From: a virus
Reading direction: 5' to 3' (one strand)
IMG/VR virus record: IMGVR_UViG_3300005843_000014
Coordinates: 1 to 63,153 of that record
Length of the DNA: 63,153 nucleotides
The notes under the pieces: generated by a model
Told to the model about the DNA's origin: nothing
Databases searched by the model: none
What the model saw: the letters and a program-made list of their open reading frames with translations, nothing else
Shown: positions 4,500 to 61,390 of the stretch, piece by piece
How positions within the stretch are numbered: position 1 is the first letter of the stretch
Layout: each line of letters starts with the position of its first letter
Translations under genes and position numbers: made by a program

Positions 4500-4508
4500 C
4501 AATAATAA

Positions 4509-7599: not shown

Positions 7600-7608
7600 A
7601 AATTAATT

Positions 7609-8766
7609 ATGGCTTTTAAGAACAGAATAAGATTGCCTTTCTACGTGACACGGCCACAGTTTCCGACTGAAGAAAACGTATTCCGCCTAGCCAATGGTGC
7701 TAGGAAAACATTGTCTGCAACAGTGCTAAAAACATTCGAAGGGGAAACGGATAATTTGCCAAAAGAAATTCACGAGAGGTTGATTATTGCATTGAAGCAT
7801 GACGATGTTATTATTGAAGGCCGTTATTATTTAGGTGGCGTTTCCATAGACGGTTCTTATGATATAGATTGGAATAAATTTTTAGATTATCCATTAGCAA
7901 AGGCCGCGTTTAAAGTGCAGGTTACGCCGTTCAATTATTCAAATGATAATTGTCATACATGTGAAGATATATCACAAGTAGTATGCGTAGATGATAATTT
8001 AGGAACGATAAATGAGGACGATACTATTACAGTTGATGTGCTTGCGAATGATGAAATTTGTTGTAGCCCGGTTGTTATTTCTTTAGTGACATATAATACC
8101 GATTTCCTGGATAGTTGCATAATATCAGGAAACGATATAGTGATCCATGCAAAACCAAGTCTTCCAAGCGCAAATGGCGTTATTTTAGTGACTTACCGGG
8201 CACAATGTCCAAATGGCTCATATGATGAAGCTAATGTTATTGCAAATGTAAATGGCAGTGAGGTGGCCTGCCTGGCGCCTACTGATTTGACAATAGACGC
8301 AATATCAGATGTGCATTGCTTCATTAGTTGGACGCAACCTGTCGGTGCAATATCATATGAATGGCAATTATATTTAATTACCGATTTGGTTAATCAAGTC
8401 GATGGCGGTACAGCGTTTCCACCAGAAAACGCAATTGATATAATGGGGTTAACTGCATCAACTCATTATAGATTTTATGTCAATAGTGTTTGTGATGACG
8501 ATAATAGAAGTAACAGCGTATATATAGACTTTACAACAGACCCGGCCAGTGGAACAGAAACCTGCGGTCAATATAGTTTAGAAAATCAAAATTTATCTGA
8601 TTTTCTATCCGTCTCTTATATCGATTGCAATGGCGCCCAACAGGATGTATTAGTTCCTCCGTCTGGAAACGTTACAATATGTGCGCTGCAGACTAGTGAT
8701 TGTAATCCGGTAGAAATAATTGTTCAAAATAGTGACATACAAATATTATGCTTGGGACTATGTTAA
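7609..8766 (+). CDS. minor tail protein with cadherin-like and fibronectin type III-like domains
   Basis: This 385-residue protein has an N-terminal phage domain (about 1-120). A segment at about 125-215 contains the 'ED-x-ITV-DVLANDE' signature of cadherin-like/VCBS repeats. A fibronectin type III-like domain follows at about 222-312 (Pro-x-x-Leu, Trp, and a Tyr-x-Phe-x-Val strand), then a cysteine-rich tail. Ig-like folds of this kind decorate phage tails and bind carbohydrate weakly. The gene lies in the tail operon. Confidence 0.65.
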   Translation: MAFKNRIRLPFYVTRPQFPTEENVFRLANGARKTLSATVLKTFEGETDNLPKEIHERLIIALKHDDVIIEGRYYLGGVSIDGSYDIDWNKFLDYPLAKAAFKVQVTPFNYSNDNCHTCEDISQVVCVDDNLGTINEDDTITVDVLANDEICCSPVVISLVTYNTDFLDSCIISGNDIVIHAKPSLPSANGVILVTYRAQCPNGSYDEANVIANVNGSEVACLAPTDLTIDAISDVHCFISWTQPVGAISYEWQLYLITDLVNQVDGGTAFPPENAIDIMGLTASTHYRFYVNSVCDDDNRSNSVYIDFTTDPASGTETCGQYSLENQNLSDFLSVSYIDCNGAQQDVLVPPSGNVTICALQTSDCNPVEIIVQNSDIQILCLGLC

Positions 8767-9635
8767 GATCAAAAGGAATATTATTACTTGCTACTGGGCA
8801 TCCATATTACGGCCGTATGGCATATAATTTAAGTATGTCAATTAAAGCCATAGAACCGGATTTTCCTATCTGCTTAATACATAGTGAAAATTCGCTTAAT
8901 CATTTGAGTGCAGGCCAACGGCGTTTCTTCGACCAAATGATTTTGTTACCGGAATCTCAGGTAAAGGGTTTTGCATGTAAACTTCATTTGGATGAACTAA
9001 GCCCCTTCGAAGAAACGCTTTTTCTTGATGCAGATATGGCCTGGTTGCCGAAACGCGGCCCGAGTGAATTGATAGCCGAACTTTCTACTTATGAATACAC
9101 AGGCATAACGGAAGGGTATTTTAATATTGAAACCACCGACCGATCAGAAATCAGTAAAAAATATTACTTCTGGGCCGATGTGGATGAGATTGTAAAAAAA
9201 TATGATCTAACTGGTAAAATATATCAATGGCGCAGTGAGGTTATTTACTTTAAGAAAACGGAAAAAGTAAAGCAGTTTTTTATAGACGCGAGAAAGATAA
9301 ACGCTGACCACGGATTGAAAAGTATAATCATGTTTGGCAACCAAGTTCCCGACGAATTGGGAATCAATATCAGCGCAGCGATTCACGGCATAGAGCCCCA
9401 TCAATACAAATGGGTACCAGCTTTGTGGCCGCGATTGCATGGTAATAACTCAACTTGTTTCGAGGAAATCTACAACCGGTACTACCTTCTAAGCTGTGGA
9501 AGTAATTACGCTACAGGCGATATTAAGAAGTTATACGACCGTGTTATTAAATGCGCGGCTAATAAGTTCCAGACACAACATATATTTCCTTTAATTGATA
9601 AAAAATCATTCATCCCTGACCGGGCAAAAATGTAA
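8760..9635 (+). CDS. GT8-like glycosyltransferase
   Basis: This protein of about 291 residues starts with ATG at 8760, overlapping the previous gene; an ATG at 8748 is an alternative. The first 100 residues form a nucleotide-sugar-binding fold with a hydrophobic strand ending in the Asp-Ala-Asp (DxD) metal motif near residue 90, followed by a helix-rich half. It resembles GT8/'nucleotide-diphospho-sugar transferase' proteins. It is a glycosyltransferase inside the virion operon on the late strand, unlike the minus-strand cassette further on, so it may glycosylate virion proteins. Sugar and acceptor are unknown. Confidence 0.7.
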   Translation: MLRSKGILLLATGHPYYGRMAYNLSMSIKAIEPDFPICLIHSENSLNHLSAGQRRFFDQMILLPESQVKGFACKLHLDELSPFEETLFLDADMAWLPKRGPSELIAELSTYEYTGITEGYFNIETTDRSEISKKYYFWADVDEIVKKYDLTGKIYQWRSEVIYFKKTEKVKQFFIDARKINADHGLKSIIMFGNQVPDELGINISAAIHGIEPHQYKWVPALWPRLHGNNSTCFEEIYNRYYLLSCGSNYATGDIKKLYDRVIKCAANKFQTQHIFPLIDKKSFIPDRAKM

Positions 9636-9638
9636 AGC

Positions 9639-11444
9639 ATGGCCTACGAATTACCATCATACGATATACTGAAGCCTTATTTTGTCGATAAGCAAACTCA
9701 CTATTATTATGACAAAACCAATAAGAAGTGCAGGGCTTTTGAGCCGCACGCGGAAGGGTGTTATCCTGAGCATTTAATTGGATGCCGGCGCCCCAATGAG
9801 CCCTTGGAAGTGAAGGATTATCGTAAAGAAATATGGGTGCCTAAAACGCTGCCAACATTTAACCGGATTCTTTCTAGCCTGGGCGCAATAAGGCGTAGTA
9901 CGGATTGGTCTATCAAATACCCGGAGTTAGGTGTATTTACAAAAGTACGGGAAGGTGAAAGTCTGGAAAATTACTGTGAAAAACATTTTCCTTATTTTGA
10001 ATCGGTTACCAATTGGATATTTTCAGTTGCGTTGAAAAAATATCTGACTGATTCGAATGGGGTTGTTTTGATTATGCCGTTAACTACCGATATTCTTGAA
10101 ACTGATTTTCTAAAACCTTACCCTATACTGTTTGATTGCTGCGATGTAGTAGAGTTTAAATATGGCGACCATGCTATTTTAAGTAATCCATTGGGGTGCA
10201 TGTATGTGACAAAAAAAGGCGCACTTGAAAAGGGCAGATCATGGTATTATGTTGATGAGTTTGCGATTACAAAGTACGATCAGATCGATGCTAAGGGTAC
10301 AATGGCGCCGAATATTCCATATGAGCATAATCTGGGAATATTACCCTGTTTCAAAATGGGGGGCGTCGTCTGTGAAACCGAAGGGCATAACTTTCTTTAC
10401 GAGAGCCGGATAGCTGGGATACTGCCCGAACTGGACGAAGCATTACGCGAATATAGCGACCTGCAGGCGGCTAAGGTATTGCACGTATACCCGGAGCCAT
10501 GGGAGTTTACGCAGCATGAATGTGCGACATGCAAAGGATCGGGACAACGTAGAAACCCATTATGGTTTGACGGCTGCGATACTGCAACGCCTGTTCAGGT
10601 TCCTTGTGACGCAGGTTGCCAAAATGGATATATATCGACAGGTCCCTATGGTAAATTACTTATACGGCAGCCATCTGCAATAGAAGGGGGTGGGGCAATT
10701 CCAAATCCTCCAAAGGGGTATGTTGTGAAAGATATTGCAATCGTGAAAGTGATGGAAGACAGTGTAAGGCAGCATATTTACGATGGGATGGCTGCCATTA
10801 ACTTTCAGGAGTTAGCAGAAGTCCCCTTAGCTCAATCGGGAGTGGCTAAAGCGGTTGATCGGGATGAGCGTAACAATACCATTCACGCCATTGCTGAAGA
10901 TATAGTAAAGTTAATGGATCTTACTTATAAGATCACCGCTTATTACCGGTACAAGGGTTTATATACTTTCGAGGAAATCGATATAATGTTACCCCAAATC
11001 CCGGTACCCGAAAAGTACGACCTATTATCGATCACGAACATGCAGACCGAATTGAACTCGGCCAAAACCGGTAAGACAAATCCAGTGATAGTAAACGCCA
11101 TGGAGGTGGACTACGCAAGTAAGCGATTCAATACCGACGAATCGGTGCGCGACCTGGTTTCGCTTACACTAAAACTTGACCCGCTCCCAAACATCAGCGA
11201 AGATGAAAAGATGGCTAGGCTTTCAAATAAGGGGATATTACCGGAAACTTATATTGTAAGCAGCAATATTACTGAATTCGTTCAGCGGGCATTAGATGAA
11301 GATCCGAAGTTTGCTGGATTGGCGCTGAAAGATCAAAAAGCAAAGTTGCTGACCTATGCTATTGAGATAACCAATAAACTCGATACGGCAAAAGGTATTA
11401 TTGCGGCTGTTAACCAGGAAGTAAGAAATAACGAAGCGGCTTAA
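9639..11444 (+). CDS. portal protein
   Basis: This 601-residue protein is immediately followed by a Mu F-like minor head protein, the usual portal neighbour. An unusual insertion at about residues 293-330 contains Cys-x-x-Cys-x-Gly-x-Gly and a second Cys-x3-Cys pair, resembling a DnaJ-type zinc finger. The C-terminal third is helical, as in portal barrels. The portal forms the dodecameric DNA channel at the capsid vertex. The call rests on neighbours, size and character. Confidence 0.7.
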   Translation: MAYELPSYDILKPYFVDKQTHYYYDKTNKKCRAFEPHAEGCYPEHLIGCRRPNEPLEVKDYRKEIWVPKTLPTFNRILSSLGAIRRSTDWSIKYPELGVFTKVREGESLENYCEKHFPYFESVTNWIFSVALKKYLTDSNGVVLIMPLTTDILETDFLKPYPILFDCCDVVEFKYGDHAILSNPLGCMYVTKKGALEKGRSWYYVDEFAITKYDQIDAKGTMAPNIPYEHNLGILPCFKMGGVVCETEGHNFLYESRIAGILPELDEALREYSDLQAAKVLHVYPEPWEFTQHECATCKGSGQRRNPLWFDGCDTATPVQVPCDAGCQNGYISTGPYGKLLIRQPSAIEGGGAIPNPPKGYVVKDIAIVKVMEDSVRQHIYDGMAAINFQELAEVPLAQSGVAKAVDRDERNNTIHAIAEDIVKLMDLTYKITAYYRYKGLYTFEEIDIMLPQIPVPEKYDLLSITNMQTELNSAKTGKTNPVIVNAMEVDYASKRFNTDESVRDLVSLTLKLDPLPNISEDEKMARLSNKGILPETYIVSSNITEFVQRALDEDPKFAGLALKDQKAKLLTYAIEITNKLDTAKGIIAAVNQEVRNNEAA

Positions 11445-11447
11445 TCA

Positions 11448-12398
11448 ATGGCAGACTTTAACGAAATACTGGAAAAGATCAACGAATCAATATTAAATAT
11501 GAATAAACGTATACCGTCTATTCAAAAAGATATTTATGATTCATTGCAGGAAGATCTGCGCAACCTGGATTTGCAAAATGGAAAGATAAAAGCCACGGTG
11601 AAAAACCTTTCTCTGATCAATTCGATTAAAAACAAGCTCAACAAATTAATATTAACACCAGAGTATAAAGCAGAGGTAAAAGACTTTGCTAAATCATTCA
11701 ATGAGATCACCGCCTTGCAGAACGACTATTGGCGCGGAATCGAAAAGCAATTTAAGCCAAAACCATTACTGCAGGCTATTAAAGAACAGGCGATTTCAGA
11801 TACTGTCTCCAAACTCACTGAGGCGGGGATAGGTGCCAATATTGCTGACCCCATTGCTGATATACTCCGAACAAACATAACGACAGGCGGCAGCTATAAA
11901 GACCTGTCAGACCAATTACGTGAAAGCCTGGTGAATACTCAGACACCGGGGACCATGGAGAAGTACATTGGGCAGATAACGACCGATGCGGTGAATCAGT
12001 ATAGCAACCAGTACACGCAAGTGGTTTCGTCTGATTTGGGCTATACCTGGTTCAAGTATGATAATACTGATATTCTTACCACCCGCCCTTTTTGCGATGC
12101 CATGACCGACCGGCCATACTTCCATATCAGCGAGGTGCCGGCATTACTGCGCGGTGAAGGGCTTACCTACCTCAATAAAAAGACCGGAAAGCGTCAACCG
12201 GTGGAGATCTACGAAAAGACCGGGCTGCCATCGGGCATGATCCCCGGCACCGATGCGAGTAACTTTTTTATCCGACGCGGCGGTTACCGGTGCGGGCATA
12301 GTATTCGCCCGGTTAATGAGCGCCAGGTGCCGCAAGCTGATAAGGATAGAGTTTTCGCAACTCCTGCGTATATTGCATGGAAAGAAGCAAATTCATGA
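11448..12398 (+). CDS. Mu F-like minor head/morphogenesis protein
   Basis: This 316-residue protein is helical at the N-terminus. Its C-terminal half carries the Mu gpF/SPP1 gp7 pattern: Thr-Arg-Pro-Phe-Cys at about 210-215, then Gly-Gly-Tyr-Arg-Cys-Gly-His near residue 280. It lies 4 bases after the portal gene. Members bind the portal and take part in head assembly or are injected with DNA. Confidence 0.8.
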   Translation: MADFNEILEKINESILNMNKRIPSIQKDIYDSLQEDLRNLDLQNGKIKATVKNLSLINSIKNKLNKLILTPEYKAEVKDFAKSFNEITALQNDYWRGIEKQFKPKPLLQAIKEQAISDTVSKLTEAGIGANIADPIADILRTNITTGGSYKDLSDQLRESLVNTQTPGTMEKYIGQITTDAVNQYSNQYTQVVSSDLGYTWFKYDNTDILTTRPFCDAMTDRPYFHISEVPALLRGEGLTYLNKKTGKRQPVEIYEKTGLPSGMIPGTDASNFFIRRGGYRCGHSIRPVNERQVPQADKDRVFATPAYIAWKEANS

Positions 12399-12399
12399 T

Positions 12400-12591
12400 A
12401 TGGCATCAGATTTAATGCAAATTGAAATCATTTGGAAGGAAATTCCCACCACTTGCGAGCCATGTGTTGCCTGTAAAGAACCTATCTACGGAAAACAATA
12501 TCAAATGTTTACGGTAATTGGCGGTAAAGAAAGTGCAATGGATACTATTGTTTGCGGAAGTTGTTATACTGAGATTGACAAAGAGAATTAA
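12400..12591 (+). CDS. small CxxC zinc-ribbon-like protein
   Basis: This 63-residue protein starts at ATG 12400, one base after the previous stop. Two Cys-x-x-Cys pairs (CVAC around 23-26 and CGSC around 52-55) suggest a zinc ribbon. It is the last + strand gene before the minus-strand cassette; its stop overlaps the stop of the convergent gene by two bases. No function is recognised. Confidence 0.6.
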   Translation: MASDLMQIEIIWKEIPTTCEPCVACKEPIYGKQYQMFTVIGGKESAMDTIVCGSCYTEIDKEN

Positions 12592-13097
12592 TTACCTAAG
12601 GCTTCATTTAATTCAACAAAGTAATTCCGATCTTTTAAGGGTAAATCCACGGTGAGATTATCGTGAGTTCTTCCGTTAGAAAACCTAATACTTTTTACTG
12701 CTTTATTAAGTAGCTTAATTGAAGTAAGGCATTCCCCCAACGCATTAGTAGAGTCGATAAAGAAACCTGAATTGCTTTTACACCCAAATTGATTCCAGGC
12801 TTTTATTTGCAATCTACTGCCATCCTCAAAAAGGAAATCTAATACATCATTTTGGTTACATGCACCTATGCCTGAAAACTTTATAAATAATCCAGTGCAT
12901 TCAACCTTGTCTTCTTCATTCTTTTTAATAATCGGCTCAATAAGGAACCATTTTTTGGCATCCTTCACCGCCTTCAGTCCTTTGGAAGCTGAGTAATAGA
13001 CCTCACCATCCATTTTATCAACCGTTTTTTTTATAGTAAGTTTCTGAGCAAAAGCATTTGAGCATATTAATAACAGTAATGGTAATATTGATTTCAT
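12588..13097 (-). CDS. secreted hypothetical protein
   Basis: This 169-residue protein is read from the ATG at 13097, which gives a clean signal peptide (basic start, Leu-rich core, Ala-x-Ala/Gln cleavage near residue 18). The longer frame start at 13136 would bury it. The mature part is beta-rich with four cysteines. It is the last gene of the minus-strand glycan cassette. A periplasmic or surface role is inferred from the signal peptide only. Confidence 0.65.
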   Translation of the reverse strand: MKSILPLLLLICSNAFAQKLTIKKTVDKMDGEVYYSASKGLKAVKDAKKWFLIEPIIKKNEEDKVECTGLFIKFSGIGACNQNDVLDFLFEDGSRLQIKAWNQFGCKSNSGFFIDSTNALGECLTSIKLLNKAVKSIRFSNGRTHDNLTVDLPLKDRNYFVELNEALGN

Positions 13098-13136
13098 ATT
13101 TTTCTGGGTTTTTAGGGTCGAAATGTACAAAATCAT

Positions 13137-13754
13137 TTAAATATCAACTGTTATAATCCGCCCCTGGGGTATAGTCCGCTCGCCAACAGTCGAATATTGG
13201 CAATTATTTAACCCATCATCGGGGTGCCGGGGAGCTTTAGCCTGCTCCATTTTGACGGGATCGTAACCGGTAGGGTGATCTTTTGGATGGGGTAGTGAAA
13301 GGTAACGATGTTCGCGGGAGGCAACCTGTAACCCAGCAGCTAATACGCTGTAATACAGGCTGTCGTCTTCGCCACCCCAGCCGGGAAATAGGTTGCTATA
13401 CCCATTTATCTTGTCGAAATCAGCCCTGTTAAATGCGACTACACCTCCGAAGTATTTATCATGCGGCATCTTCCAACCGAACTGACTTGCATGCGTGGCC
13501 AGGTGCGTGGGATGTTCGGGGTAGGAATAATCATGCGTGCCCTGCACCAACATATCCACATCGTGGAAAATGAAGTAATCGGAATCCGATAGTAAGGCGC
13601 CGATATTCTTAATTAAACCACGGTTAAATGGCTTATGGATGGATTGCTCAATTACCAGGAATTCAGCTTTCGGTAGCCGGGGCCGGTAGTGTTGGAGGAA
13701 TTTAGCGAGGTGACCGGCGCGGTTACGGTAAGGGATGATAATGGAAAGTTTCAT
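13137..13754 (-). CDS. GT7-like galactosyltransferase family protein
   Basis: This 205-residue protein has the beta-1,4-galactosyltransferase/GT7 landmarks: an N-terminal 'IIIPYRNR' strand, Phe-Asn-Arg-Gly near 43-46, the Asp-Val-Asp metal motif at 65-67, Tyr-Phe-Gly-Gly-Val near 101-105 and the diagnostic Trp-Gly-Gly-Glu-Asp-Asp at 126-131. It should transfer a hexose (galactose or GalNAc type) to a glycan acceptor. Its start overlaps the exostosin gene stop by 4 bases, implying one transcript. Confidence 0.85.
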   Translation of the reverse strand: MKLSIIIPYRNRAGHLAKFLQHYRPRLPKAEFLVIEQSIHKPFNRGLIKNIGALLSDSDYFIFHDVDMLVQGTHDYSYPEHPTHLATHASQFGWKMPHDKYFGGVVAFNRADFDKINGYSNLFPGWGGEDDSLYYSVLAAGLQVASREHRYLSLPHPKDHPTGYDPVKMEQAKAPRHPDDGLNNCQYSTVGERTIPQGRIITVDI

Positions 13755-14611
13755 TTATTAACCTCCTGAAGTATTTTTTGCCGGCAGCCTTCATATCCAA
13801 ATAGAGACTTTATTTCTTCAATTCCTTTCTGCAATATTGGAATGCAATCTTTTCGAACATCATTCAGGAAACTAAAAGCATTTTCATTATTGCTTATAGT
13901 CGCCCCGTATGAATTGAATGGTATACCAAAAGGAAAAACAAATTCATCGCTCACGTAAACCGGAATTGCACCATAATGTATTGCCTCCATTATGCGAAAT
14001 GAGGATTTCCCATACCCGCGCGGGCACAACGCAAACACTGATCTCGCCAGTACATTACAATAGTCCTTCATGGGCAGCTTCTTAATCATTACCATGCAAT
14101 CTTTCTTACCGGCGAACTGCTCAACCAACTGTTTTCGGATCGGATGCGTATCACCCCCAACGAACGATGCGAAAATATCCCGCTTGCAGTCGAACTTATA
14201 GCCGTGTGGCTGGCAGAGAAGCGGGATAGGGTAATCTATCCGGCCGCCAGACATTCCGAACACAACTATATCCAGGTCCTTAAAATCAATTATAGGACCA
14301 TCATCGTACTGACAAATAGTAAAGTACTTTTTATCACGTGGCAGACCGTCAATGAACCGCTGCATAGCGTTGCGGCCTTTCTCTTTTGTCGCATAGCCAT
14401 TGGCCACCCAATACGCAGTCCAAAATATTGGCAGATATGTTCTTCCGGTTATTTCTTCAGGTTGTGTATTGTCATAAAACCACCGCTCAAATTCATGCTT
14501 GTTGTCTTCCGGGTAGGGGTGCGGGTGCTTAATCCGAAATTCGATCGGGGTATAAAAGAACGCTTTATCCTTTGTTGCGTAAGCCGTTCGGGGGAATGTT
14601 CGTCTGATCAT
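13751..14611 (-). CDS. exostosin-like (GT47) glycosyltransferase
   Basis: This 286-residue protein contains the exostosin signature at about 194-220: Phe-Ala-Leu-Cys-Pro-Arg-Gly-Tyr-Gly, then Ser-Phe-Arg ... Glu-Ala ... Gly-Ala-Ile-Pro-Val-Tyr-Val. Exostosin-family enzymes add GlcA, Xyl, Gal or GlcNAc residues to polysaccharides. Size is that of a single catalytic domain without membrane anchor. It overlaps both neighbours by 4 bases (ATGA type). Confidence 0.8.
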   Translation of the reverse strand: MIRRTFPRTAYATKDKAFFYTPIEFRIKHPHPYPEDNKHEFERWFYDNTQPEEITGRTYLPIFWTAYWVANGYATKEKGRNAMQRFIDGLPRDKKYFTICQYDDGPIIDFKDLDIVVFGMSGGRIDYPIPLLCQPHGYKFDCKRDIFASFVGGDTHPIRKQLVEQFAGKKDCMVMIKKLPMKDYCNVLARSVFALCPRGYGKSSFRIMEAIHYGAIPVYVSDEFVFPFGIPFNSYGATISNNENAFSFLNDVRKDCIPILQKGIEEIKSLFGYEGCRQKILQEVNK

Positions 14612-15234
14612 TCTATTTTGTTTTTTCGTACATAAAGCGCATCACTCCAAGCATTCCCTACCCATGCGCCGGTTTCAACCCGATCAAATTCATGCAGAAT
14701 TGCATCGAGCTCATCGATAAGCGTGCATCCTTGGTAAACCTCATCGCGATTCACTTCTGTATACACGTAGTTGACTTGCTTCAGCGTCTCAGTGGCGCCT
14801 TTAAGAACCCGTCCTTCAAACCCCTGGCAGTCCATTACAAGCAATTGATAGCCCTTGTGAGCCAACCCCAGACTATCCAGGCGTTTAACCGTTACTAGCT
14901 CGGTATTGGGTAATGTAATACCAGGGTGAATCTGCAGGTGTTTCTGCATCTTCAGCAGGCTATTGCTTTGTCCTTCATTCTGGCTTCCTGTGTACATAAC
15001 CTGTTCACATTCTACTTCACCGCAGGCAACGTTAAACAATTGGATATGATGGTGGGCGGAGAACTTATTTTTAAGGACGTTAAAGGTTGCCGCGCATGGT
15101 TCTATGTAAACAAATCGTTTTATTCCGGCAGCAACGTAGTCGGGGTGCTCTTGCGCGAAATGCGCACCCACGTGTATGCAACCATCGGCTTTGATGGAAT
15201 ATTTTTTAACAAGGGAAGGGAAGTTTAAGAGCAT
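14608..15234 (-). CDS. FkbM-family O-methyltransferase (first copy)
   Basis: This 208-residue class I SAM methyltransferase has a motif I-like Val-Gly-Ala-His near 22-25, an acidic strand Tyr-Ile-Glu-Pro, and the family pattern of Leu-Asp ... Met-Asp-x-Gln-Gly-x-Glu ... Leu-x-Gly-Ala. FkbM enzymes O-methylate sugars and polyketides. Between glycosyltransferase genes the likely substrate is a glycan hydroxyl. It overlaps the GT47 gene start by 4 bases. Confidence 0.85.
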   Translation of the reverse strand: MLLNFPSLVKKYSIKADGCIHVGAHFAQEHPDYVAAGIKRFVYIEPCAATFNVLKNKFSAHHHIQLFNVACGEVECEQVMYTGSQNEGQSNSLLKMQKHLQIHPGITLPNTELVTVKRLDSLGLAHKGYQLLVMDCQGFEGRVLKGATETLKQVNYVYTEVNRDEVYQGCTLIDELDAILHEFDRVETGAWVGNAWSDALYVRKNKIE

Positions 15235-15236
15235 GG

Positions 15237-15881
15237 TTAATTAATTATTGTAATTACCTTTTTTGCCGTTCTTTTATCAATTTGCCTTTTTAAATCTTCA
15301 AGACTTTCGGAATACTCATATGTAGGGTTGTTATTCCACCATTTTTTGTTGCTTTTATTTATATATATATCGCCCAATGTTTTTATATACAAGGCAGCTT
15401 GAACATCTCCGAAAACCCTTACTATTTTGTTCTCATTATATGTTTCTTTAAATGGGTTCTTTATTTTATCTAATACTATCTGCGCCAATTCAATTGAACC
15501 AAAATCGTAATTTCTATAAATGAGTAAAGCCCTGCCTTCATACCGAAAGTAATTTTCTATTATGCCGCACGAGAAATACCAACAAATAAACTGCTTCTGA
15601 ATTCTATATCTAACCTCCTTGCCGCACTCAATTTTTATTATTCTATACTTTGACATTATGCTTTTTTTTACTGCATTTAGGTAAAATCCGGTTTCGCCAT
15701 TGCCACACTCACAAATAACGAACGAACCACCTGCGTAAGCGGGGCCATCATCTATTCTTATTACTTTTAATGGGCCTTTATAAAAGTATTTGTCAAGGTT
15801 CGGAAATTCATCCCTGTATGTGATATAGTCGCCGGGTTCTATGCCTTTATCATTCTTTCTAATCTTATTCCACCACGACAT
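15237..15881 (-). CDS. hypothetical protein in glycan cassette
   Basis: This 214-residue, Lys/Tyr/Ile-rich protein has low GC relative to its neighbours. The N-terminal 70 residues look like a small beta-barrel with Cys-Glu-Cys-Gly, and the C-terminus is helical and basic. An internal ATG near residue 76 could start a second product. No family is recognised. Two bases separate it from the methyltransferase gene. Confidence 0.55.
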   Translation of the reverse strand: MSWWNKIRKNDKGIEPGDYITYRDEFPNLDKYFYKGPLKVIRIDDGPAYAGGSFVICECGNGETGFYLNAVKKSIMSKYRIIKIECGKEVRYRIQKQFICWYFSCGIIENYFRYEGRALLIYRNYDFGSIELAQIVLDKIKNPFKETYNENKIVRVFGDVQAALYIKTLGDIYINKSNKKWWNNNPTYEYSESLEDLKRQIDKRTAKKVITIIN

Positions 15882-15883
15882 AT

Positions 15884-16291
15884 CTAATTTTTTATTTTCA
15901 GTTCTTCACCGGTTAGGGCGTGGTAAAGGTTTTGTAGTTGGTGGAGGTATTTGATTTCTGTCCTTTTGCCATTGAACTTTGCTAGGATATCATGAAATAG
16001 TCCGGGTAATTCATCGTCTTCAAATAAATAAACCCCATTGCGTCTGTAATGTCCATTTTCGACTGCTCCATCTTTTACAAACTCGCACCGTTCCAGCCAT
16101 TCAACGGTCATCGGGATGGGCTCAAATATCGTTTCATTTTCTATCTTTTCATCAGTGCTCTGGCCTATATCGCAGACTCCAATTAATGATTGGTATTCAT
16201 CATCAATATCCAAGCTTATGCTTGTAACATGAACAATAGAACCTTTGTAATGCAAAAGATTGCCTAACCTCAATTCTGCCGATATTCTCAT
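15884..16291 (-). CDS. small phage-type hypothetical protein
   Basis: This 135-residue protein starts with a 'Glu-Leu-Arg-x-Gly-Asn-x-Leu' beta strand and includes 'Pro-Ile-Pro-Met-Thr-x-Glu-Trp-Leu'. I associate this layout with uncharacterised proteins common in Bacteroidota phages and mobile elements. Function is unknown. It sits inside the glycan cassette without obvious enzymatic motifs. Confidence 0.6.
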   Translation of the reverse strand: MRISAELRLGNLLHYKGSIVHVTSISLDIDDEYQSLIGVCDIGQSTDEKIENETIFEPIPMTVEWLERCEFVKDGAVENGHYRRNGVYLFEDDELPGLFHDILAKFNGKRTEIKYLHQLQNLYHALTGEELKIKN

Positions 16292-16302
16292 ATTGTAAAT
16301 TT

Positions 16303-16860
16303 TTAATACTCCTTTATCATCACAATATTCTGTTCATAAACAAAATTCAGATACCGGTTTTCCGGTAACTGCTTAAACAAACAATCGGCAGTAAACCGAT
16401 AGGGTAATCCCTGTTGATAGAAACCATTCCGGCAGCAGTCGGTGTCTTCAATGAAATAGTGCTTACCATTGAACAGGCCAAAGAAGGTTATCATCTGGTC
16501 ACGGCTATTATGAGAACCGTCATCGATGATCACATCGAAATTTTCATTCCGAAGCTTATCGAGCATAAGCCAATCGCATTGATCACCAGTATGCAAAGTG
16601 ATATTGCTTGACCCATCCGTATTTGCAAAAGATTCATCCCATATTTCTCTTGCCGATTTTTCAGAGAACAAATCCAATCCATGAATTTCGGCATTAGGGA
16701 AATACTCGTGCCACATGAGAATGCTCGCCCCATCTTTTACGCCGATTTCTAAAATTTTATGTGGATGACGAGGTAAATGCTTCTCATAGAATGGCATATA
16801 ATTGTGTCTTAAGCTCCCTTTATCAGTGCCATATTTTACGCTCAGTTCATCCAAGGTCAT
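16303..16860 (-). CDS. class I SAM-dependent methyltransferase (MycE/macrocin-type)
   Basis: This 185-residue protein opens with Lys-Tyr-Gly-Thr-Asp-Lys-Gly, then motif I Ile-Leu-Glu-Ile-Gly-Val-Lys-Asp-Gly-Ala near 36-45, an acidic Gly-Leu-Asp strand, and Val-Ile-Ile-Asp-Asp-Gly-Ser-His near 110-117. This matches the small sugar O-methyltransferase group related to MycE and cephalosporin-hydroxylase-like enzymes, which use a metal-binding Asp-Asp/His. It overlaps the upstream FkbM gene by 14 bases. Confidence 0.75.
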   Translation of the reverse strand: MTLDELSVKYGTDKGSLRHNYMPFYEKHLPRHPHKILEIGVKDGASILMWHEYFPNAEIHGLDLFSEKSAREIWDESFANTDGSSNITLHTGDQCDWLMLDKLRNENFDVIIDDGSHNSRDQMITFFGLFNGKHYFIEDTDCCRNGFYQQGLPYRFTADCLFKQLPENRYLNFVYEQNIVMIKEY

Positions 16861-17500
16861 GGTAGGTAATTAAAAAGTTTGCAAATCGGTAATCTTCTAC
16901 AAAGTTTTCTTTAGTGACTTGCTGCAGCTTTCCTTCGATCAACTCATATATTTTGTAACCATAGAGTTCTACAAAGTAAATCACGTCTATGAATGTTATG
17001 CCCGCATCAGGGTATGTGCCGCCATACTCTACCTGCAAAAACATTATCTTATGCTTACTTAGCATTTTGAAACTTCCTTTCAATACATCAAGTTCGGCGC
17101 CCTCTACATCGATTTTCAGAAAGTCAATAAAATCTATATTAGTGGATTCGCAGAACAGATCAACCGTGGTGCATTTAATCACTTCTTCCTTATGCTCCAC
17201 ATCTCCGAACACGGGCCGATTATATGTGCTTGATAATTCATCGGCCTCATTTGCGCATTGATAGAAGGTCTTAACTCCGGCCGTATCGCCTAATAAAATC
17301 CCAAAGGCGTTATACTTCTTTTCCAGATCTTTTAATAGCCCGGCATTTGGTTCGAATAAAATACATTCCGCGCCTGGTATCTGAGAAAGTACATACTCCG
17401 TATATGCTCCTTTGTGGGCGCCAACATCGAATACCACGGGCGGATTATGCAGATATTTCTTTGAGATATTAAACAATATTTTTTCGTCTTCGGTTAGCAT
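16847..17500 (-). CDS. FkbM-family O-methyltransferase (second copy)
   Basis: This 217-residue protein has motif I Val-Phe-Asp-Val-Gly-Ala-His-Lys-Gly near 18-26, then Leu-Phe-Glu-Pro-Asn, and the FkbM landmark Phe-Leu-Lys-Ile-Asp-Val-Glu-Gly-Ala-Glu-Leu near 134-144. It is clearly diverged from the first FkbM gene, so this is not a recent duplication and probably reflects a different hydroxyl target. It overlaps its upstream neighbour by 7 bases. Confidence 0.88.
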   Translation of the reverse strand: MLTEDEKILFNISKKYLHNPPVVFDVGAHKGAYTEYVLSQIPGAECILFEPNAGLLKDLEKKYNAFGILLGDTAGVKTFYQCANEADELSSTYNRPVFGDVEHKEEVIKCTTVDLFCESTNIDFIDFLKIDVEGAELDVLKGSFKMLSKHKIMFLQVEYGGTYPDAGITFIDVIYFVELYGYKIYELIEGKLQQVTKENFVEDYRFANFLITYHDLG

Positions 17501-17760
17501 AGCTTAAATATTCTTTTAAACCAGTTTATTAATTGTTTCCAGATTGTAAAATTTAAAGGCAGGCTCAAATCGTAATAATCTATCCATCTGCCTTCGATAT
17601 CCCAGCAACCGAACGTGCAGAAATAATGAACGGTTATTATCTGGCCGATCATGCCCGCGTACCACGTTTTAGGATCGCTGCACTTGGTTATCCTTCGCCG
17701 GTCCGGTTTTACGCCGGGTGGATAATTGCGGGCTGCTGAGTCTGGGTATGGGTGGTTCAT
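17494..17760 (-). CDS. small hypothetical protein
   Basis: This 88-residue protein has a Pro/Arg-rich N-terminus and an aromatic-rich C-terminal half ending in Phe-Lys-Leu-Cys. It overlaps both neighbours by a few bases, consistent with co-translation in the cassette. No family is recognised. Confidence 0.5.
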   Translation of the reverse strand: MNHPYPDSAARNYPPGVKPDRRRITKCSDPKTWYAGMIGQIITVHYFCTFGCWDIEGRWIDYYDLSLPLNFTIWKQLINWFKRIFKLC

Positions 17761-18056
17761 GTCTTAAAGTCTTTATTTATTTTTTCTGCTCCTTTTATTG
17801 CAATAGCAATTTCATCATTCATAAAGTTTGGAATTAACATAATATGCACCTTCCCCCAATCATCAGTAATAATAAATTTGGTATGAGTGTCATCTTTCTT
17901 AACCTCAACTTTAGAGCGAGTTGAAACCGGTAAAGCAGTAAAATAACCACCGCCTACCTTCCACTCAAGGTCTACTACATTGCAATCGAATTTTATTATC
18001 TTAAAATATTCCTCATTATTGAAAATGACAGCCTGTGGGTTGAATTTCTTTTTCAT
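17757..18056 (-). CDS. small hypothetical protein
   Basis: This 99-residue beta-rich protein carries charged Lys/Asp patches and no signal peptide. It starts two bases after the fucosyltransferase stop and ends overlapping the next gene by 4 bases. Function is unknown. Confidence 0.55.
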   Translation of the reverse strand: MKKKFNPQAVIFNNEEYFKIIKFDCNVVDLEWKVGGGYFTALPVSTRSKVEVKKDDTHTKFIITDDWGKVHIMLIPNFMNDEIAIAIKGAEKINKDFKT

Positions 18057-18058
18057 GC

Positions 18059-18793
18059 TTACATTTTAATAAACCTTTCCGGCATCAAATCACATGTTTC
18101 TAAGTGTTTTGCTTTCGGCCCATACCACCGATCTTCAGCCGGTGCAATAACAATAGGGTTGTCGGGTCGCAGGAGCGACGGAAAAAGCGAAAATGTTGAA
18201 TTACCAATTATGAATGCACTCGCATTATACATATCCTTCATATCGCTGAGCGGGTCTTTTACGTCCGAATATGTGATAAAGTAATTATCCAAATCAGTTC
18301 TCATAAACATTAGTTTACACCATAATATATCATCCGAAAAAACCTTTAACTGCTTGTTACCAAATGATGCCATCATATGAATTGCGTGTATATAATAATC
18401 CAGTGGCATCACCGGGAACTGATCCGGGTACTTAAGGTAATCTCCACGCCTGATGTGCACCGCTACGTAAGGTTCCGGCTTATGAACGAAACCCAACGCT
18501 TCTGCAATCTGCTCTTTATAGCCATGCCAGTACTTTTCACTTTGGAAATACCCCTCAATAGTCAGGCTGTCCACTTCCGGCAGCGGATCGTAACAATGCC
18601 GCTTCTCTTTATAATAGTGCAGTGTTGCGCTCTTTGTTTCTGGCAAGTGGCTGAAATATGTTCGCCAAATCTGCGGGCTGATAGTTTTTTTAGGGATAGA
18701 GTAGGTGGTGTTCATTTTGAGTGCATGAGAAATTGAGCATGCGATCATGAAACACTGGTTGCCGAGTTGGCCAAAAAGTTTCGGTTGGATCAT
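18059..18793 (-). CDS. alpha-1,2-fucosyltransferase family (GT11)
   Basis: This 244-residue protein has the GT11 hallmarks: Gly-Gln-Leu-Gly-Asn-Gln at 8-13 and the GDP-fucose-binding His-Ile-Arg-Arg-Gly-Asp-Tyr at 113-119. A later Asn-Ser-Thr-Phe-Ser segment (about 199-203) belongs to motif III. It should transfer L-fucose from GDP-fucose in the cytoplasm. Bacteroidota glycans are often fucosylated and O-methylated, which fits the methyltransferases of the cassette. Sugar-nucleotide synthesis genes are absent, so donors must come from the host. Confidence 0.9.
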   Translation of the reverse strand: MIQPKLFGQLGNQCFMIACSISHALKMNTTYSIPKKTISPQIWRTYFSHLPETKSATLHYYKEKRHCYDPLPEVDSLTIEGYFQSEKYWHGYKEQIAEALGFVHKPEPYVAVHIRRGDYLKYPDQFPVMPLDYYIHAIHMMASFGNKQLKVFSDDILWCKLMFMRTDLDNYFITYSDVKDPLSDMKDMYNASAFIIGNSTFSLFPSLLRPDNPIVIAPAEDRWYGPKAKHLETCDLMPERFIKM

Positions 18794-18996
18794 AATTTTT
18801 CCAATTCTTGTTTTACTTCGCGCCAGCCATTTAGAATCCTTATATCTGATATTTCATTCTGAAAATAAAAAACATTAATAGCTGCGATCACCTCGTCAAC
18901 ACACGTAATTGCCGCATCAATTGGAAATTGCGTATTCGACTGACCAAAGTCTGTGAATTTATCAACAAGCTCTTTCGCTTTTTCTTTAGCTGTCAT
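18790..18996 (-). CDS. small hypothetical protein
   Basis: This 68-residue helical protein begins with a Lys/Glu-rich helix, 'Ala-x-Glu-Leu-Val-x-Lys-Phe', a pattern found in many small phage accessory proteins. It overlaps the fucosyltransferase start by 4 bases. Function is unknown. Confidence 0.55.
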   Translation of the reverse strand: MTAKEKAKELVDKFTDFGQSNTQFPIDAAITCVDEVIAAINVFYFQNEISDIRILNGWREVKQELEKL

Positions 18997-18997
18997 G

Positions 18998-19234
18998 TCA
19001 ATTATTATTTATTCTCTCATAATCCACCATCTTAACCATATCCGGCTCGTTCGTTCCTGCCTTACATGGTATTTCTGCAACAAGCTCTCCGATCACTTTT
19101 AAGTATCCACGATTTTCATAACACCATTCCTGCGCTAATTCCAATGTAGGCGCCTCAACATTTTCTCCACACCAGGTTTTAACAACTCCGGTTTTGGCAT
19201 CTGGCGCCTTAAACTCTGTAAGCCACATCTTCAT
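18998..19234 (-). CDS. small phage-type hypothetical protein
   Basis: This 78-residue protein has an N-terminal 'Met-x-Leu-Thr-Glu-Phe-Lys-Ala' strand, a Trp-Cys-Gly, then 'Gly-Glu-Leu-Val-Ala-Glu-Ile-Pro-Cys'. I associate this type with phages of Bacteroidota, where it has no known role. It shows that the cassette mixes glycan enzymes with ordinary phage small genes. Confidence 0.6.
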   Translation of the reverse strand: MKMWLTEFKAPDAKTGVVKTWCGENVEAPTLELAQEWCYENRGYLKVIGELVAEIPCKAGTNEPDMVKMVDYERINNN

Positions 19235-19575
19235 ACAATCCCATTTTGTTGGTTATGCATAGCCAACGCAATTAACCGGTTTGGATTATTCCACGGTTCT
19301 TCGGATTTTGCCATTGCCTTTAATAAAAAGTTCTTATATGATATCAGCCTGACTTCTTCCATCAGTACTTCAATGATAAAAGCCTTACCGGTGTCTGGTA
19401 GCTCCGTTGAGAATGCGACATAATATTTAGTTGCTCGACCTTGCTGGGTTATATTGATAAGGTGAAAGCCGGGCTTCTGCGGTGTGCTGTAATACGCTTT
19501 AATTTGGTCTTGCAGCTGCAGTTCCTGGACTGGCTCGAAGTAGGCGGATAGTTGTTGTGGTTGGAGGTGGATCAT
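19231..19575 (-). CDS. hypothetical protein
   Basis: This 114-residue protein has mixed alpha/beta character and is Gln-rich at the N-terminus. Its start overlaps the stop of the 40-residue membrane peptide and its end overlaps the next start, both ATGA-type. No recognisable family. Confidence 0.55.
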   Translation of the reverse strand: MIHLQPQQLSAYFEPVQELQLQDQIKAYYSTPQKPGFHLINITQQGRATKYYVAFSTELPDTGKAFIIEVLMEEVRLISYKNFLLKAMAKSEEPWNNPNRLIALAMHNQQNGIV

Positions 19576-19694
19576 TCAGTTTCTAGTTTATAAAGGCCAT
19601 ATAATACCCATAGGCATAAGCATACAAATCCTTTTGTTCCGAAAATAATATCGGCTAGTGAAATTATTCCTAATATGTATTGGATCGGCTTCAT
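19572..19694 (-). CDS. 40-residue single-pass membrane peptide
   Basis: This short frame links its neighbours by ATGA overlaps on both sides: its ATG overlaps the GT2 stop at 19691-19694 and its TGA overlaps the next ATG. The product is hydrophobic (Ile/Leu/Phe/Trp-rich) with a Cys-Leu-Cys-Leu-Trp stretch, consistent with one transmembrane helix. Precise coupling argues that it is a real gene. Function is unknown; it could anchor a neighbouring enzyme. Confidence 0.55.
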   Translation of the reverse strand: MKPIQYILGIISLADIIFGTKGFVCLCLWVLYGLYKLETE

Positions 19695-20401
19695 AACGCC
19701 ATTATCATTTTCCTAACCTCCGCCTGCATGCGCATATTGTGATCAACGCCTTGCAGAAAGCCGCTGCCCTTGTGAACCCGGTGGAAGTATTGCATGCCTG
19801 GAACAATATGAAAATTACCACCTGCTTTTAAGTGATTGTAATTGTGCCAAATAGTATCTGAAGCTACATGCGTAGGATTGTAACGATATGTTTTTAAATA
19901 AAAATCACGGTTAACGATGTAGTTTGCAGTGTTCATTAGGCAATTAAATCCATCTTGAATGATGGTTCTTTTAGCCAATGGGGCATCAAACCGCATTCCA
20001 GCACCTACGCCATTATACTTTGTGTAATCAAAGTCAGGTTTAGCAAAATCTGGACAGAAAATATTTAGTTCAATAGGATTACTATCACCCAAATATTTGA
20101 GAAACGCATCCAAGTAATCCGGTCCAATTACATTGTCGCTATCGAAAATTATTACCCACGGGTTCGAAGCATACCCAATTGCATCGGCCTTATTCCTGCT
20201 CATTCCCCTGTTCTGCGCCTGGTGAAATATCTTCACTTTCCCGCCGGCCAAGCTGTTTACCTTTTCTTTTATACCAGGCTCAGTACTGCAATCGTCGACA
20301 ATAATTATTTCGGATATGCGGGGATCATCAATCACTTGGGCGTAGGATTCTTTAAGAAGTTCGAAGCGGTTGTATGTAGTGATACAAAGCGATAGATTCA
20401 T
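19691..20401 (-). CDS. GT2-family glycosyltransferase
   Basis: This 236-residue GT-A fold enzyme has an N-terminal 'Leu-Cys-Ile-Thr-Thr-Tyr-Asn-Arg' strand, Val-Asp-Asp-Cys-Ser at 35-39, 'Asn-Arg-Gly' near 64-66 and the metal-binding Asp-Ser-Asp at 87-89. It should transfer a hexose from a UDP or dTDP donor. It lacks membrane segments. It is the first recognisable enzyme gene of the cassette after the promoter-proximal DNA-binding-like gene. Confidence 0.88.
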   Translation of the reverse strand: MNLSLCITTYNRFELLKESYAQVIDDPRISEIIIVDDCSTEPGIKEKVNSLAGGKVKIFHQAQNRGMSRNKADAIGYASNPWVIIFDSDNVIGPDYLDAFLKYLGDSNPIELNIFCPDFAKPDFDYTKYNGVGAGMRFDAPLAKRTIIQDGFNCLMNTANYIVNRDFYLKTYRYNPTHVASDTIWHNYNHLKAGGNFHIVPGMQYFHRVHKGSGFLQGVDHNMRMQAEVRKMIMAL

Positions 20402-20421
20402 ACCTTTTAGGATTCTTTTAT

Positions 20422-20631
20422 TTAAATATTCTTTTGTCCCTGCCTCGATCTGTCATATTCTCTTATTATATGGTATATCGTAGAGGAAAGGCTGAATTGA
20501 CGCAACCCCCGATTACCCTTCAGCTTCGCCTGCTCCCGCCAGAGAATCTTGTAAACATCTTCCGGGATGTTCTTCAAAGGATACCTCGTTTCCTTCAATA
20601 ATTGGTTACGTTTTGTTTTTTGTGGTGCCAT
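20422..20631 (-). CDS. small basic protein, ribbon-helix-helix-like
   Basis: This 69-residue protein starts at ATG 20631; a longer frame from 20664 would begin at the predicted transcription start, so it is less likely. It has a basic N-terminal arm, then 'Tyr-Pro-Leu-Lys-Asn-Ile-Pro-Glu-Asp-Val-Tyr' and two helices, similar in layout to ribbon-helix-helix or Arc-type DNA-binding proteins. First gene after the cassette promoter; a local regulatory role is a guess. Confidence 0.5.
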   Translation of the reverse strand: MAPQKTKRNQLLKETRYPLKNIPEDVYKILWREQAKLKGNRGLRQFSLSSTIYHIIREYDRSRQGQKNI

Positions 20632-20665
20632 ATGGTTACCGAAATTACTGTAAATATAGAACATT

Positions 20666-20699
20666 CAAACATAAATGAAAGTATTTTTACATTCAACAA
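20666..20699 (-). promoter_or_regulatory. Bacteroidota-type promoter of the glycan cassette
   Basis: On the minus strand a TATGTTTG box (20673-20666) matches the Bacteroidota -7 consensus TAnnTTTG, and a TTG (20696-20694; another at 20699-20697) lies about 20 bases upstream, matching the -33 element spacing. Transcription would start near 20659, just before the 20631 start codon. The -33 lies just 3' of the + strand frame's first ATG (20675), supporting the internal start at 20708 for that gene. Confidence 0.65.
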
Positions 20700-20707
20700 T
20701 CCCAATT

Positions 20708-21065: not shown

Positions 21066-21074
21066 TTTTATATT

Positions 21075-22022: not shown

Positions 22023-22052
22023 TTCATTTACTCATCATTTAATTTATTGTAT

Positions 22053-23186
22053 ATGGCTACCGGCTTCTGCCCGTACCTGCTTAAGCATATCAAAGAGATT
22101 GCGGGAAACAACGCGCCCGGCTCTAAAATGCATGTGGCAGGTTTTTTGGCAATGACTTTTTGTTGTGCAAATAGCACTGTTTCCCCGCTGAACGACTCAT
22201 ACCAGGGCGGTCATCAAACTTCCATGGTTGTTAAATACCGTCGTCGGCCAACACTTTCGGATGTACAGACAACCGACGATTGTGCAATCAATACCACGCC
22301 CGGTTATCTGGAATGGAATGTACCATCATTGTCGCATGCCCAATATTCATTTCACATTTCTGACGATCAGATCAGCCGCTATTGTGCCGATGCCAGTCGC
22401 ATGGTATCAACAGGCCAGCCCGCCACGCGCGTAATGCAGGAAGTTTACGACCTGGTGGTTGATGGTGCCAATATCGTGTTGAAGAAAATCAACCAGGTAT
22501 TAGTTACCGCTATGGCTACGGAATTTGGAGTTAATGTGGCCAACGGCAGCGCATCGGGCAAAGTGATCAATATTAACCAGGATGGAAACAAAGTCATTCT
22601 GGATAATGGAATCGTTGACATGATGCAGGACTTGCAAGAAAATGAATTCTGCGGTGATCCGTGCATTGTTGGCGGTGGATTATTTGCGGCCTATCAAAAA
22701 GCACAGGCAATTGCATGCTGCAGCGCTGCCGGCCTCGATACCAGCAAAATGGGTTTGCCTAATTTCTTCTTTGATAAAGACACACAAAGTATATGGGGTA
22801 ATAATGCCATTGGTGTTTTCGCTCCGGGCAGTGTGAAATTTATCGGCCGCAACAAGTTTGTCGGTGATTTCGGTGGCCCCAAACCAGGCGGAAGCATATT
22901 CACTACACTTCCATTACCCGTCCAGGAATTTGGCTGTGCTGATGATTGCTTGAAAGACCTGGTTCTTGACCTGCAATTGAAATATTATGATTGCCGCACA
23001 GAGGTTTCCGACGGTGTTTTCGTTGATCGCGGATGGCAGGGTATAATCAGCAAAGATTATGCACTGTGGGTTCAGCCTGATAATGGCTATGCTTCCGGTG
23101 ATGAACTGGAAGGCACCAATGGGACACTGAAGTATTTCATCGGAAATAGCGCTTACAGCGGACCCGCTTACGCATATCCTGTTTAG
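22053..23186 (+). CDS. major capsid protein
   Basis: This 377-residue protein begins at the ATG at 22053; an in-frame TTG lies two codons upstream. It follows the scaffold gene and precedes connector genes. Acidic, beta-rich and cysteine-containing (Cys-Cys-Ala-Asn near 37-40) with well-balanced codon use, as expected of an abundant virion protein. HK97-fold membership is inferred from gene order, not from a motif. Confidence 0.75.
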   Translation: MATGFCPYLLKHIKEIAGNNAPGSKMHVAGFLAMTFCCANSTVSPLNDSYQGGHQTSMVVKYRRRPTLSDVQTTDDCAINTTPGYLEWNVPSLSHAQYSFHISDDQISRYCADASRMVSTGQPATRVMQEVYDLVVDGANIVLKKINQVLVTAMATEFGVNVANGSASGKVININQDGNKVILDNGIVDMMQDLQENEFCGDPCIVGGGLFAAYQKAQAIACCSAAGLDTSKMGLPNFFFDKDTQSIWGNNAIGVFAPGSVKFIGRNKFVGDFGGPKPGGSIFTTLPLPVQEFGCADDCLKDLVLDLQLKYYDCRTEVSDGVFVDRGWQGIISKDYALWVQPDNGYASGDELEGTNGTLKYFIGNSAYSGPAYAYPV

Positions 23187-42281: not shown

Positions 42282-42289
42282 CGAAATTA

Positions 42290-59203: not shown

Positions 59204-59229
59204 AATTTCAGGAAAAAGTGAAAATAAGT

Positions 59230-61318: not shown

Positions 61319-61390
61319 ACTTTTGTTCAGGGTAAGATTGCCACAATTTTCATTTCTTTTCATTTCTTTCAACTTATTCTGAAATTACTG

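What the first reader, a model, noticed from the sequence alone, without database searches (positions are those of the whole stretch)
12588..20699. Minus-strand glycan cassette inserted inside the head-gene operon
Between the Mu F-like head gene and the scaffold gene, 17 minus-strand genes encode GT2, GT11 (fucose), GT47, GT7-like and three methyltransferases (two FkbM, one MycE-like). Most genes are a few bases apart or overlap. No sugar-nucleotide synthesis genes are present, so host donors would be used. Bacteroidota are known for fucosylated and O-methylated glycans on proteins and surfaces. A phage-borne, methyl-capped, fucosylated glycan pathway, for virion decoration or lysogenic conversion, would be an unusual system.
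Basis: partly seen in the sequence, partly recalled or inferred. Interest (0 to 1): 0.9.

Follow-up and report, generated by a model that had tools for sequence, protein, structure and literature searches.

The report
Phage-encoded glycan pathway beside head genes
This bacterial virus carries its own set of sugar-attaching and sugar-methylating enzymes between its shell-building genes, and about fifteen relatives show that this spot, next to an ever-present sugar-transfer gene, is a swappable site that probably lets each virus coat its particles with a different sugar chain.

Summary
In detail: 17 tightly packed minus-strand genes lie between the MuF-like and scaffold genes. Pfam confirms GT2, GT11, GT47, GT7, two FkbM and one MycE-like methyltransferase. 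It is not a one-off insertion. In a 100%-supported clade of 15 phages, every member with a visible slot (13) has a GT/methyltransferase cassette there, usually co-linear (GT2-GT11-MT-FkbM-GT47-GT7) and under strong purifying selection. Distant relatives keep only short genes in the slot, or different glycan genes, sometimes on the plus strand. In four related genomes a palindrome (TTTCA-N8-TGAAA) marks late-operon starts and the cassette promoter, with identical 6-nt spacing to the -7 box; this points to late expression. No conserved membrane enzyme exists. Best reading (0.55): a late, cytosolic, phage-encoded pathway that glycosylates virion protein, with a constant portal-linked transferase and variable outer-glycan enzymes, like chloroviruses and mimiviruses. 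Late masking of host surface glycans is the main rival; lysogenic conversion is disfavoured. The acceptor is unknown. New variant of a known kind.

The parts
8748..9635 (+). GT8-fold (GT-A, DxD) glycosyltransferase, between tail protein and portal; constant part of the system
   Evidence: AlphaFold2 pLDDT 86, Foldseek to glycogenin/GT8 E 2e-9; DxD (LDADM) conserved in 13 relatives; portal next in 58 of 59 relatives
9639..11444 (+). portal protein
   Evidence: phrog_7376 8.5e-8
11448..12398 (+). MuF-like head gene, left border of the slot
   Evidence: conserved position and C-terminal motif; no profile hit
12588..13136 (-). small exported protein (signal-peptide-like N-terminus), last cassette gene
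   Evidence: 75-79% identity in L006, L009; only cassette protein of 60 aa or more over the hydropathy threshold
13137..13754 (-). GT7, animal-type beta-1,4-galactosyltransferase fold; DVD, Y101 (=Y289), D130 (=D318) and H156 (=H347) invariant
   Evidence: Pfam; full-length match to beta4GalT1 1e-28; invariants
13751..14611 (-). GT47 exostosin-type glycosyltransferase
   Evidence: Pfam 1.7e-16; exostosin-1 by profile; fused to FkbM in L014 and L152
14608..15234 (-). FkbM methyltransferase 1
   Evidence: Pfam 1.7e-14; TIGR01444
15237..15881 (-). unknown protein, not seen in relatives
   Evidence: no hit
15884..16291 (-). small protein of a family common in these phages
   Evidence: homologues in L003, L011, L016-L019
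16303..16860 (-). MycE-like sugar O-methyltransferase (Methyltransf_24)
   Evidence: Pfam 2.5e-6; MycE 3ssm 5e-15 by profile
16847..17500 (-). FkbM methyltransferase 2 (variable part)
   Evidence: Pfam 1.3e-19; clear orthologue only in L004 (59%), weak match in L021
17494..18056 (-). two small unknown genes (17494-17760, 17757-18056)
   Evidence: homologues in L003 and L009
18059..18793 (-). GT11 fucosyltransferase with HIRRGDY, SDD and NST/S motifs
   Evidence: Pfam 2.5e-14; phrog_2644 5e-29; motifs
18790..19694 (-). four small unknown genes (18790-18996, 18998-19234, 19231-19575, 19572-19694)
   Evidence: two have homologues in L003 and L009, one of these also in L011
19691..20401 (-). GT2 glycosyltransferase
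   Evidence: Pfam 7.5e-21; nearest solved: chondroitin synthase
20422..20631 (-). first cassette gene: small ribbon-helix-helix-like protein, kept in relatives with and without a glycan cassette
   Evidence: sequence pattern only, no Pfam hit; homologues
20663..20680 (.). palindrome WTTCA-N8-TGAAA in the divergent promoter region; 6 nt before a TANNTTNAG-type -7 box in the cassette direction
59206..59223 (+). same palindrome before the terminase operon
61367..61384 (+). same palindrome before the gene at 61418, from which same-strand genes run through the circular junction to GT8-portal-MuF
22047..23186 (+). major capsid protein, HK97 fold
   Evidence: AlphaFold2 plus Foldseek to phage capsids E 2e-6

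Best explanation
The cassette, together with the plus-strand GT8-fold enzyme before the portal gene, encodes a soluble, cytosolic glycan-assembly pathway expressed with the late (virion) genes, and it glycosylates one or more virion proteins. Proposed steps: the constant GT8-fold enzyme acts at or near the protein (inferred); GT2, GT47, GT7 (UDP-Gal predicted) and GT11 (GDP-fucose) extend and branch the chain using host sugar nucleotides (inferred from families and motifs); the MycE-like and FkbM enzymes O-methylate sugars (inferred). The slot between MuF and scaffold is where relatives swap the outer enzymes, so closely related phages would carry different outer glycans on a common base. Shown: the genes, families, conserved catalytic motifs, purifying selection, syntenic slot, GT8-portal linkage and shared promoter element. 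Inferred: timing, acceptor, linkage, order and function (probably receptor or host-range tuning, or shielding of virions from predators or phage-binding factors).
For: GT8-fold gene immediately before the portal in 58 of 59 relatives, median gap about 3 bases, DxD kept (fold). Cassette in every clade-A member with a visible slot, clade support 100/100 in MCP and portal trees. Variable composition on a constant base, including independent plus-strand glycan genes after MuF in other clades. FkbM-GT47 fusion in L014 and L152 links methylation and transfer. pN far below pS for every enzyme in close pairs; omega 0.05-0.13 where dS is measurable. Late-promoter palindrome at terminase, structural and cassette starts in the window's nearest relatives, with 6-nt spacing to the -7 box in 11 of 11 sites including all five in the cassette direction, but not in the scaffold direction. 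No transmembrane segment in any GT or MT. Host family supplies the GDP-fucose precursor enzyme. No thymidylate-synthase-type gene for DNA hypermodification.
Against: No acceptor identified, and no virion protein gained an obvious new region. The palindrome was not found in the slot promoter of more distant clade-A members, and clade B's different slot palindromes are not at its terminase genes. The cassette is antisense to the late operons, so readthrough could silence it. A lone 20-nt-spaced Bacteroidota promoter match (20666-20696) could give lysogenic expression instead. Host-surface modification would use the same enzyme families. GT8 is lost in two prophages, so it is not essential.
Confidence: 0.55

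Rival explanations
1. Late host-surface masking: the enzymes modify a host lipid-linked or surface glycan during lytic growth, so that progeny do not rebind debris or the infected cell is not superinfected.
For: Same promoter evidence for late timing; GT2, GT11 and FkbM families are typical of surface polysaccharide loci; tail proteins carry glycan-active domains (GDSL, CEMIP-like beta-helix); cyanophage GT/epimerase clusters were interpreted as cell-wall or LPS modification (PMC9602691).
Against: No flippase, polymerase, GtrA/GtrB or other membrane GT in the cassette; does not explain the strict GT8-portal linkage.
Confidence: 0.22
2. Lysogenic conversion: a moron expressed from the prophage that changes the host surface glycan and so its phage sensitivity.
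For: Integrase in the window and most near-complete relatives; antisense orientation with its own RHH-like first gene is moron-like; exported protein at the end; promoter match at 20666-20696.
Against: Late-type promoter geometry shared with the terminase and structural operons; no PF00589 integrase found in cassette carriers G008 and G013, although these records may be incomplete; no membrane components.
Confidence: 0.13
3. Glycosylation of phage DNA bases.
For: Phage GTs can hypermodify DNA (work cited in PMC12619734).
Against: No thymidylate-synthase-like enzyme in the window or 8 relatives; GT7, GT47 and GT11 have no known DNA-modifying members (own knowledge); TET/JBP-type enzymes were not searched for.
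Confidence: 0.03

Closest known systems
Mycobacteriophage virion glycosylation (Che8, Corndog, Myrna; Freeman et al. 2023, as cited in PMC12363180 and PMC12619734)
   Same: phage-encoded GTs; capsid and tail-tube proteins glycosylated
   Different: as described there it rests on one or a few phage GTs; here about five GTs plus methyltransferases in a dedicated antisense operon next to head genes; no virion glycan shown yet
Chlorovirus (PBCV-1) capsid glycosylation (PMC7019647)
   Same: virus-encoded GTs and methyltransferases outside the ER/Golgi route; fucose, galactose and O-methylated capping sugar; conserved core and virus-specific outer part
   Different: algal virus, unrelated genes; proven chemically there, inferred here
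Mimivirus clade-specific glycogene clusters (PMC9614988)
   Same: lineage-specific swap of clustered glycan genes including GTs
   Different: giant virus fibril glycans, most genes with their own promoter; here one compact operon in one slot of a 63-kb phage
T4-like cyanophage GT clusters, for example S-SCSM1 (PMC9602691)
   Same: phage-borne GT11, GDP-mannose 3,5-epimerase and several GTs; distant GT11 (28-31%) and GT47 (31%) homologues in cyanophages
   Different: large phages; no close homologue of GT7 or of the structural genes; interpreted there as cell-wall modification
GtrABC serotype-conversion cassettes of temperate phages (own knowledge)
   Same: temperate-phage glycan genes
   Different: no GtrA or GtrB membrane proteins; location and promoter differ

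Membership tests
Phage-encoded virion glycosylation | phage-encoded soluble glycosyltransferases with intact catalytic motifs | tested here: met
Phage-encoded virion glycosylation | genes linked to or co-expressed with virion genes | tested here: met
   GT8-portal linkage; promoter element, as sequence evidence only
Phage-encoded virion glycosylation | glycan detected on a virion protein | not testable with these tools
   uncultured virus
Gtr-type serotype conversion | GtrA flippase, GtrB bactoprenol glucosyltransferase and a membrane Gtr | tested here: not met
   no such Pfam/PHROG assignment, no TM segments in the GTs; phrog_841 (GtrB-like) only weakly for the GT2 (0.004), without a TM tail
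DNA hypermodification | thymidylate-synthase-type nucleotide hydroxymethylase | tested here: not met
GT7 beta-1,4-galactosyltransferase | DVD metal site, Y289 donor residue, WGGEDD loop, H347 | tested here: met
   WGGEDD intact in the window, degenerate in L004, L011 and L014, catalytic Asp kept in all
GT11 fucosyltransferase | HxRRGDY motif | tested here: met
   HIRRGDY at residue 113; HIRLCDY in L004
GT8 | GT-A fold with DxD and GT8 sequence signature | tested here: inconclusive
   fold and DxD met; no Pfam family hit, TM-score about 0.5-0.55

The most novel reading that the evidence does not exclude
A whole lineage of Bacteroidota phages has a two-tier virion glycosylation system: a constant portal-linked glycosyltransferase plus a hypervariable outer-glycan cassette in a fixed late-regulated slot, acting like a phage counterpart of O-antigen variation, with animal-type GT7 and GT47 enzymes producing fucosylated, O-methylated virion glycans.
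Probability: 0.45. Interest if true: 0.82.

Novelty: new variant of a known kind. Interest (0 to 1): 0.62.

Why it matters
Phage virion glycosylation is known from a few mycobacteriophages. A lineage-wide fixed slot that swaps five-GT, multi-methyltransferase cassettes beside a constant portal-linked transferase would mean that some temperate phages vary their coat sugars the way bacteria vary O-antigens. It gives defined genes to delete and a cultivable host family in which to test it.

Tried and rejected
A one-off insertion: rejected by synteny in clade A. GT8 as a late acquisition absent from an outgroup (my first reading of L032/L033): rejected, since those prophages nest inside GT8 carriers in the portal tree, so the gene was lost. 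DNA hypermodification: no enabling enzyme. Defence island: no PADLOC hit for the small genes. Isolated phage relatives: none in INPHARED for portal, MCP or the region's DNA. Cassette taken over from the host family: only stand-alone chromosomal GT7 genes of 36-39% identity were found in 149 genomes. RHH identity of the first gene could not be confirmed by Pfam. The simple Bacteroidota promoter pattern gave 9 matches in the window, so its single match at the cassette is weak alone. A palindrome common to the slot and the terminase was not found in clade B.
Full report
OBSERVATION. Between 12588 and 20664 lie 17 minus-strand genes: 16 of at least 60 aa and a 40-aa ORF at 19572-19694 that overlaps both neighbours by ATGA. 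Gaps are 0-20 bases or 4-14-base overlaps, so this is one operon-like unit. Pfam confirms all seven named enzymes above curated cut-offs: GT2 19691-20401, GT11 18059-18793, FkbM 16847-17500, Methyltransf_24 16303-16860, FkbM 14608-15234, GT47 13751-14611 and GT7 13137-13754. Profile searches of solved structures place the Methyltransf_24 protein nearest MycE, a macrolide sugar O-methyltransferase (5e-15), the GT47 nearest exostosins, the GT2 nearest chondroitin synthase, and the GT7 over its full length on animal beta-1,4-galactosyltransferase 1 (1e-28). In the GT7 the metal site DVD, the tyrosine that in beta4GalT1 selects Gal (Y289; numbering from own knowledge), the catalytic Asp and the metal His are invariant in the eight sequences aligned. 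The GT11 has the HIRRGDY motif.

CONTEXT. The record is a 63,153-base virus genome, circular by a 15-base exact end overlap and by contig L012. Terminase small and large subunits are at 59246 and 59745, the portal at 9639 and an integrase at 37062. The protein at 22047 was modelled (pLDDT 68) and has the HK97 capsid fold. The MuF and scaffold labels rest on position. Nothing alike is in the isolated-phage collection for the region's DNA, the portal or the MCP. Relatives are environmental viral contigs, a Taibaiella MAG contig and more distant prophages in two genomes of the same host family.

A MISSED ENZYME. The gene at 8748-9635 (+), overlapping the preceding tail-protein gene and 3 bases before the portal gene, has no Pfam hit. 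It models well (pLDDT 86) as a GT-A/GT8-fold glycosyltransferase; the best solved matches are glycogenin and the cytosolic Skp1 galactosyltransferase (E 2e-9 to 3e-9). The DxD is invariant in the first 13 sequences. A collection scan with this family found 64 loci. Of the 59 with enough flank, 58 have the portal gene next, with a median gap of about 3 bases.

COMPARATIVE ANATOMY. In relatives the space between MuF and scaffold is a cargo slot. A clade of 15 portal rows (support 100/100; the same group in the MCP tree) contains the window. Thirteen of these have sequence reaching the slot (counting both contig ends of one circular record) and all thirteen have GT and/or methyltransferase genes there on the minus strand; the other two contigs end earlier. 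The usual order from the promoter is RHH-like gene, GT2, GT11, MycE-like MT, FkbM, GT47, GT7, with small genes and homing endonucleases interspersed. L014 and L152 fuse FkbM to GT47. L021 lacks GT47 but adds GT25, more methyltransferases and a GDP-mannose 3,5-epimerase (1.8e-85 to the plant enzyme). L147, L149 and L151 have reduced or different sets. Most other GT8-bearing relatives have only short genes in the slot, and some of these clade-B phages carry an RNA ligase. Yet L161, L170 and L181, in distant clades, carry glycan genes on the plus strand after MuF: TylF and FkbM methyltransferases, GT2-like genes and, in L181, GDP-mannose 4,6-dehydratase plus a fucose-synthase-like epimerase ('fucose synthase' is my reading of the sequence). 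So glycan genes reached this position more than once. Every enzyme is under strong purifying selection (pN about 0.07-0.36 against saturated or near-saturated pS in close pairs; omega 0.05-0.13 where measurable).

REGULATION. The pattern WTTCA-N8-TGAAA has 6 strand-matches in the window against 0.90 expected, and 0 of 100 shuffles reach 6. The four sites include 59206 (before the terminase operon), 61367 (before the gene at 61418, from which same-strand genes run through the junction to GT8, portal and MuF) and 20663 (between the cassette and the scaffold side). In four related genomes 10 of 14 matches fall at these three intergenic places, with 0.4-0.6 expected per whole genome. The terminase and 61418 sites all have a TAACTTTR-like -7 box exactly 6 nt downstream of the palindrome. 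In the divergent region the same 6-nt spacing to a TANNTTNAG-like box occurs in the cassette direction in all five sequences, while in the scaffold direction the box is 1-3 nt away. I read this as late-type control of the antisense cassette. Limits: related genomes are not independent; more distant clade-A members lack the motif at the slot; clade B has different palindromes at the slot that are not at its terminase genes; and the window also has a lone TTG-N20-TATGTTTG match reading into the cassette.

MECHANISM. No GT or methyltransferase has a transmembrane segment, so assembly would be cytosolic. Together with late-type control and the strict GT8-portal linkage, this favours glycosylation of virion protein (0.55) over late surface masking (0.22) or lysogenic conversion (0.13). 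Donors would come from the host: GDP-mannose dehydratase is above cut-off in 44 of 61 genomes of the probable host family. The acceptor, linkage and order are not shown. That the GT8-fold enzyme starts the chain is a guess from its constancy and its glycogenin-like fold.

COMPARISON. The closest functional parallels are mycobacteriophage capsid and tail-tube glycosylation (PMC12363180, PMC12619734 citing Freeman et al. 2023), chlorovirus capsid glycans with conserved core, hyperbranched fucose and O-methylated cap (PMC7019647) and mimivirus clade-specific glycogene clusters (PMC9614988). Cyanophage S-SCSM1 has a GT and epimerase set with distant GT11 homology (PMC9602691). I found no paper describing this lineage or the portal-linked GT8 (the library is incomplete). 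I therefore call it a new variant of a known kind.

Noticed in passing
L016:7369-8106, L022:774-1526, L023:4013-4744, L036:1100-1840 (reversed locus): An RNA ligase (PF09414 in L016, 2.9e-20; the others by sequence similarity) sits in the same MuF-scaffold slot in clade-B phages and, beside the glycan cassette, in clade-A phage G008; possibly an RNA-repair cargo.
   Followed up: partly
window 1072-8766 versus 9639-23186: Unusual gene order: tape-measure-like and tail genes lie between terminase and portal, before the head genes.
   Followed up: no
window 25290-28241: Tail-fibre-like protein with an internal GDSL/SGNH esterase domain (8.8e-14), a candidate glycan deacetylase.
   Followed up: partly
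window 32229-34457: CEMIP-like beta-helix plus PA14 plus PKD protein in the lysis/tail region, in a locally GC-rich stretch.
   Followed up: partly
L006:15746-16324, L009:18076-18834, window 62019-62813: NUMOD/HNH homing endonucleases lie inside cassettes of relatives; a GIY-YIG/NUMOD-like gene in the window is judged from sequence only.
   Followed up: partly
window 48523-48894: 123-aa protein resembling a stand-alone DnaA C-terminal domain (GRDHTTVIHS).
   Followed up: no
window 42211-42282: Single tRNA-Met (CAT) gene.
   Followed up: no
window 12409-12591: 60-aa CxxC...CxxC zinc-ribbon-like protein at the MuF side of the slot, conserved in L003, L004, L009 and L011; its stop overlaps the cassette end by 4 bases.
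   Followed up: partly
L149:11363-13725: A second minus-strand block of seven small genes sits between portal and MuF, a different cargo position.
   Followed up: no
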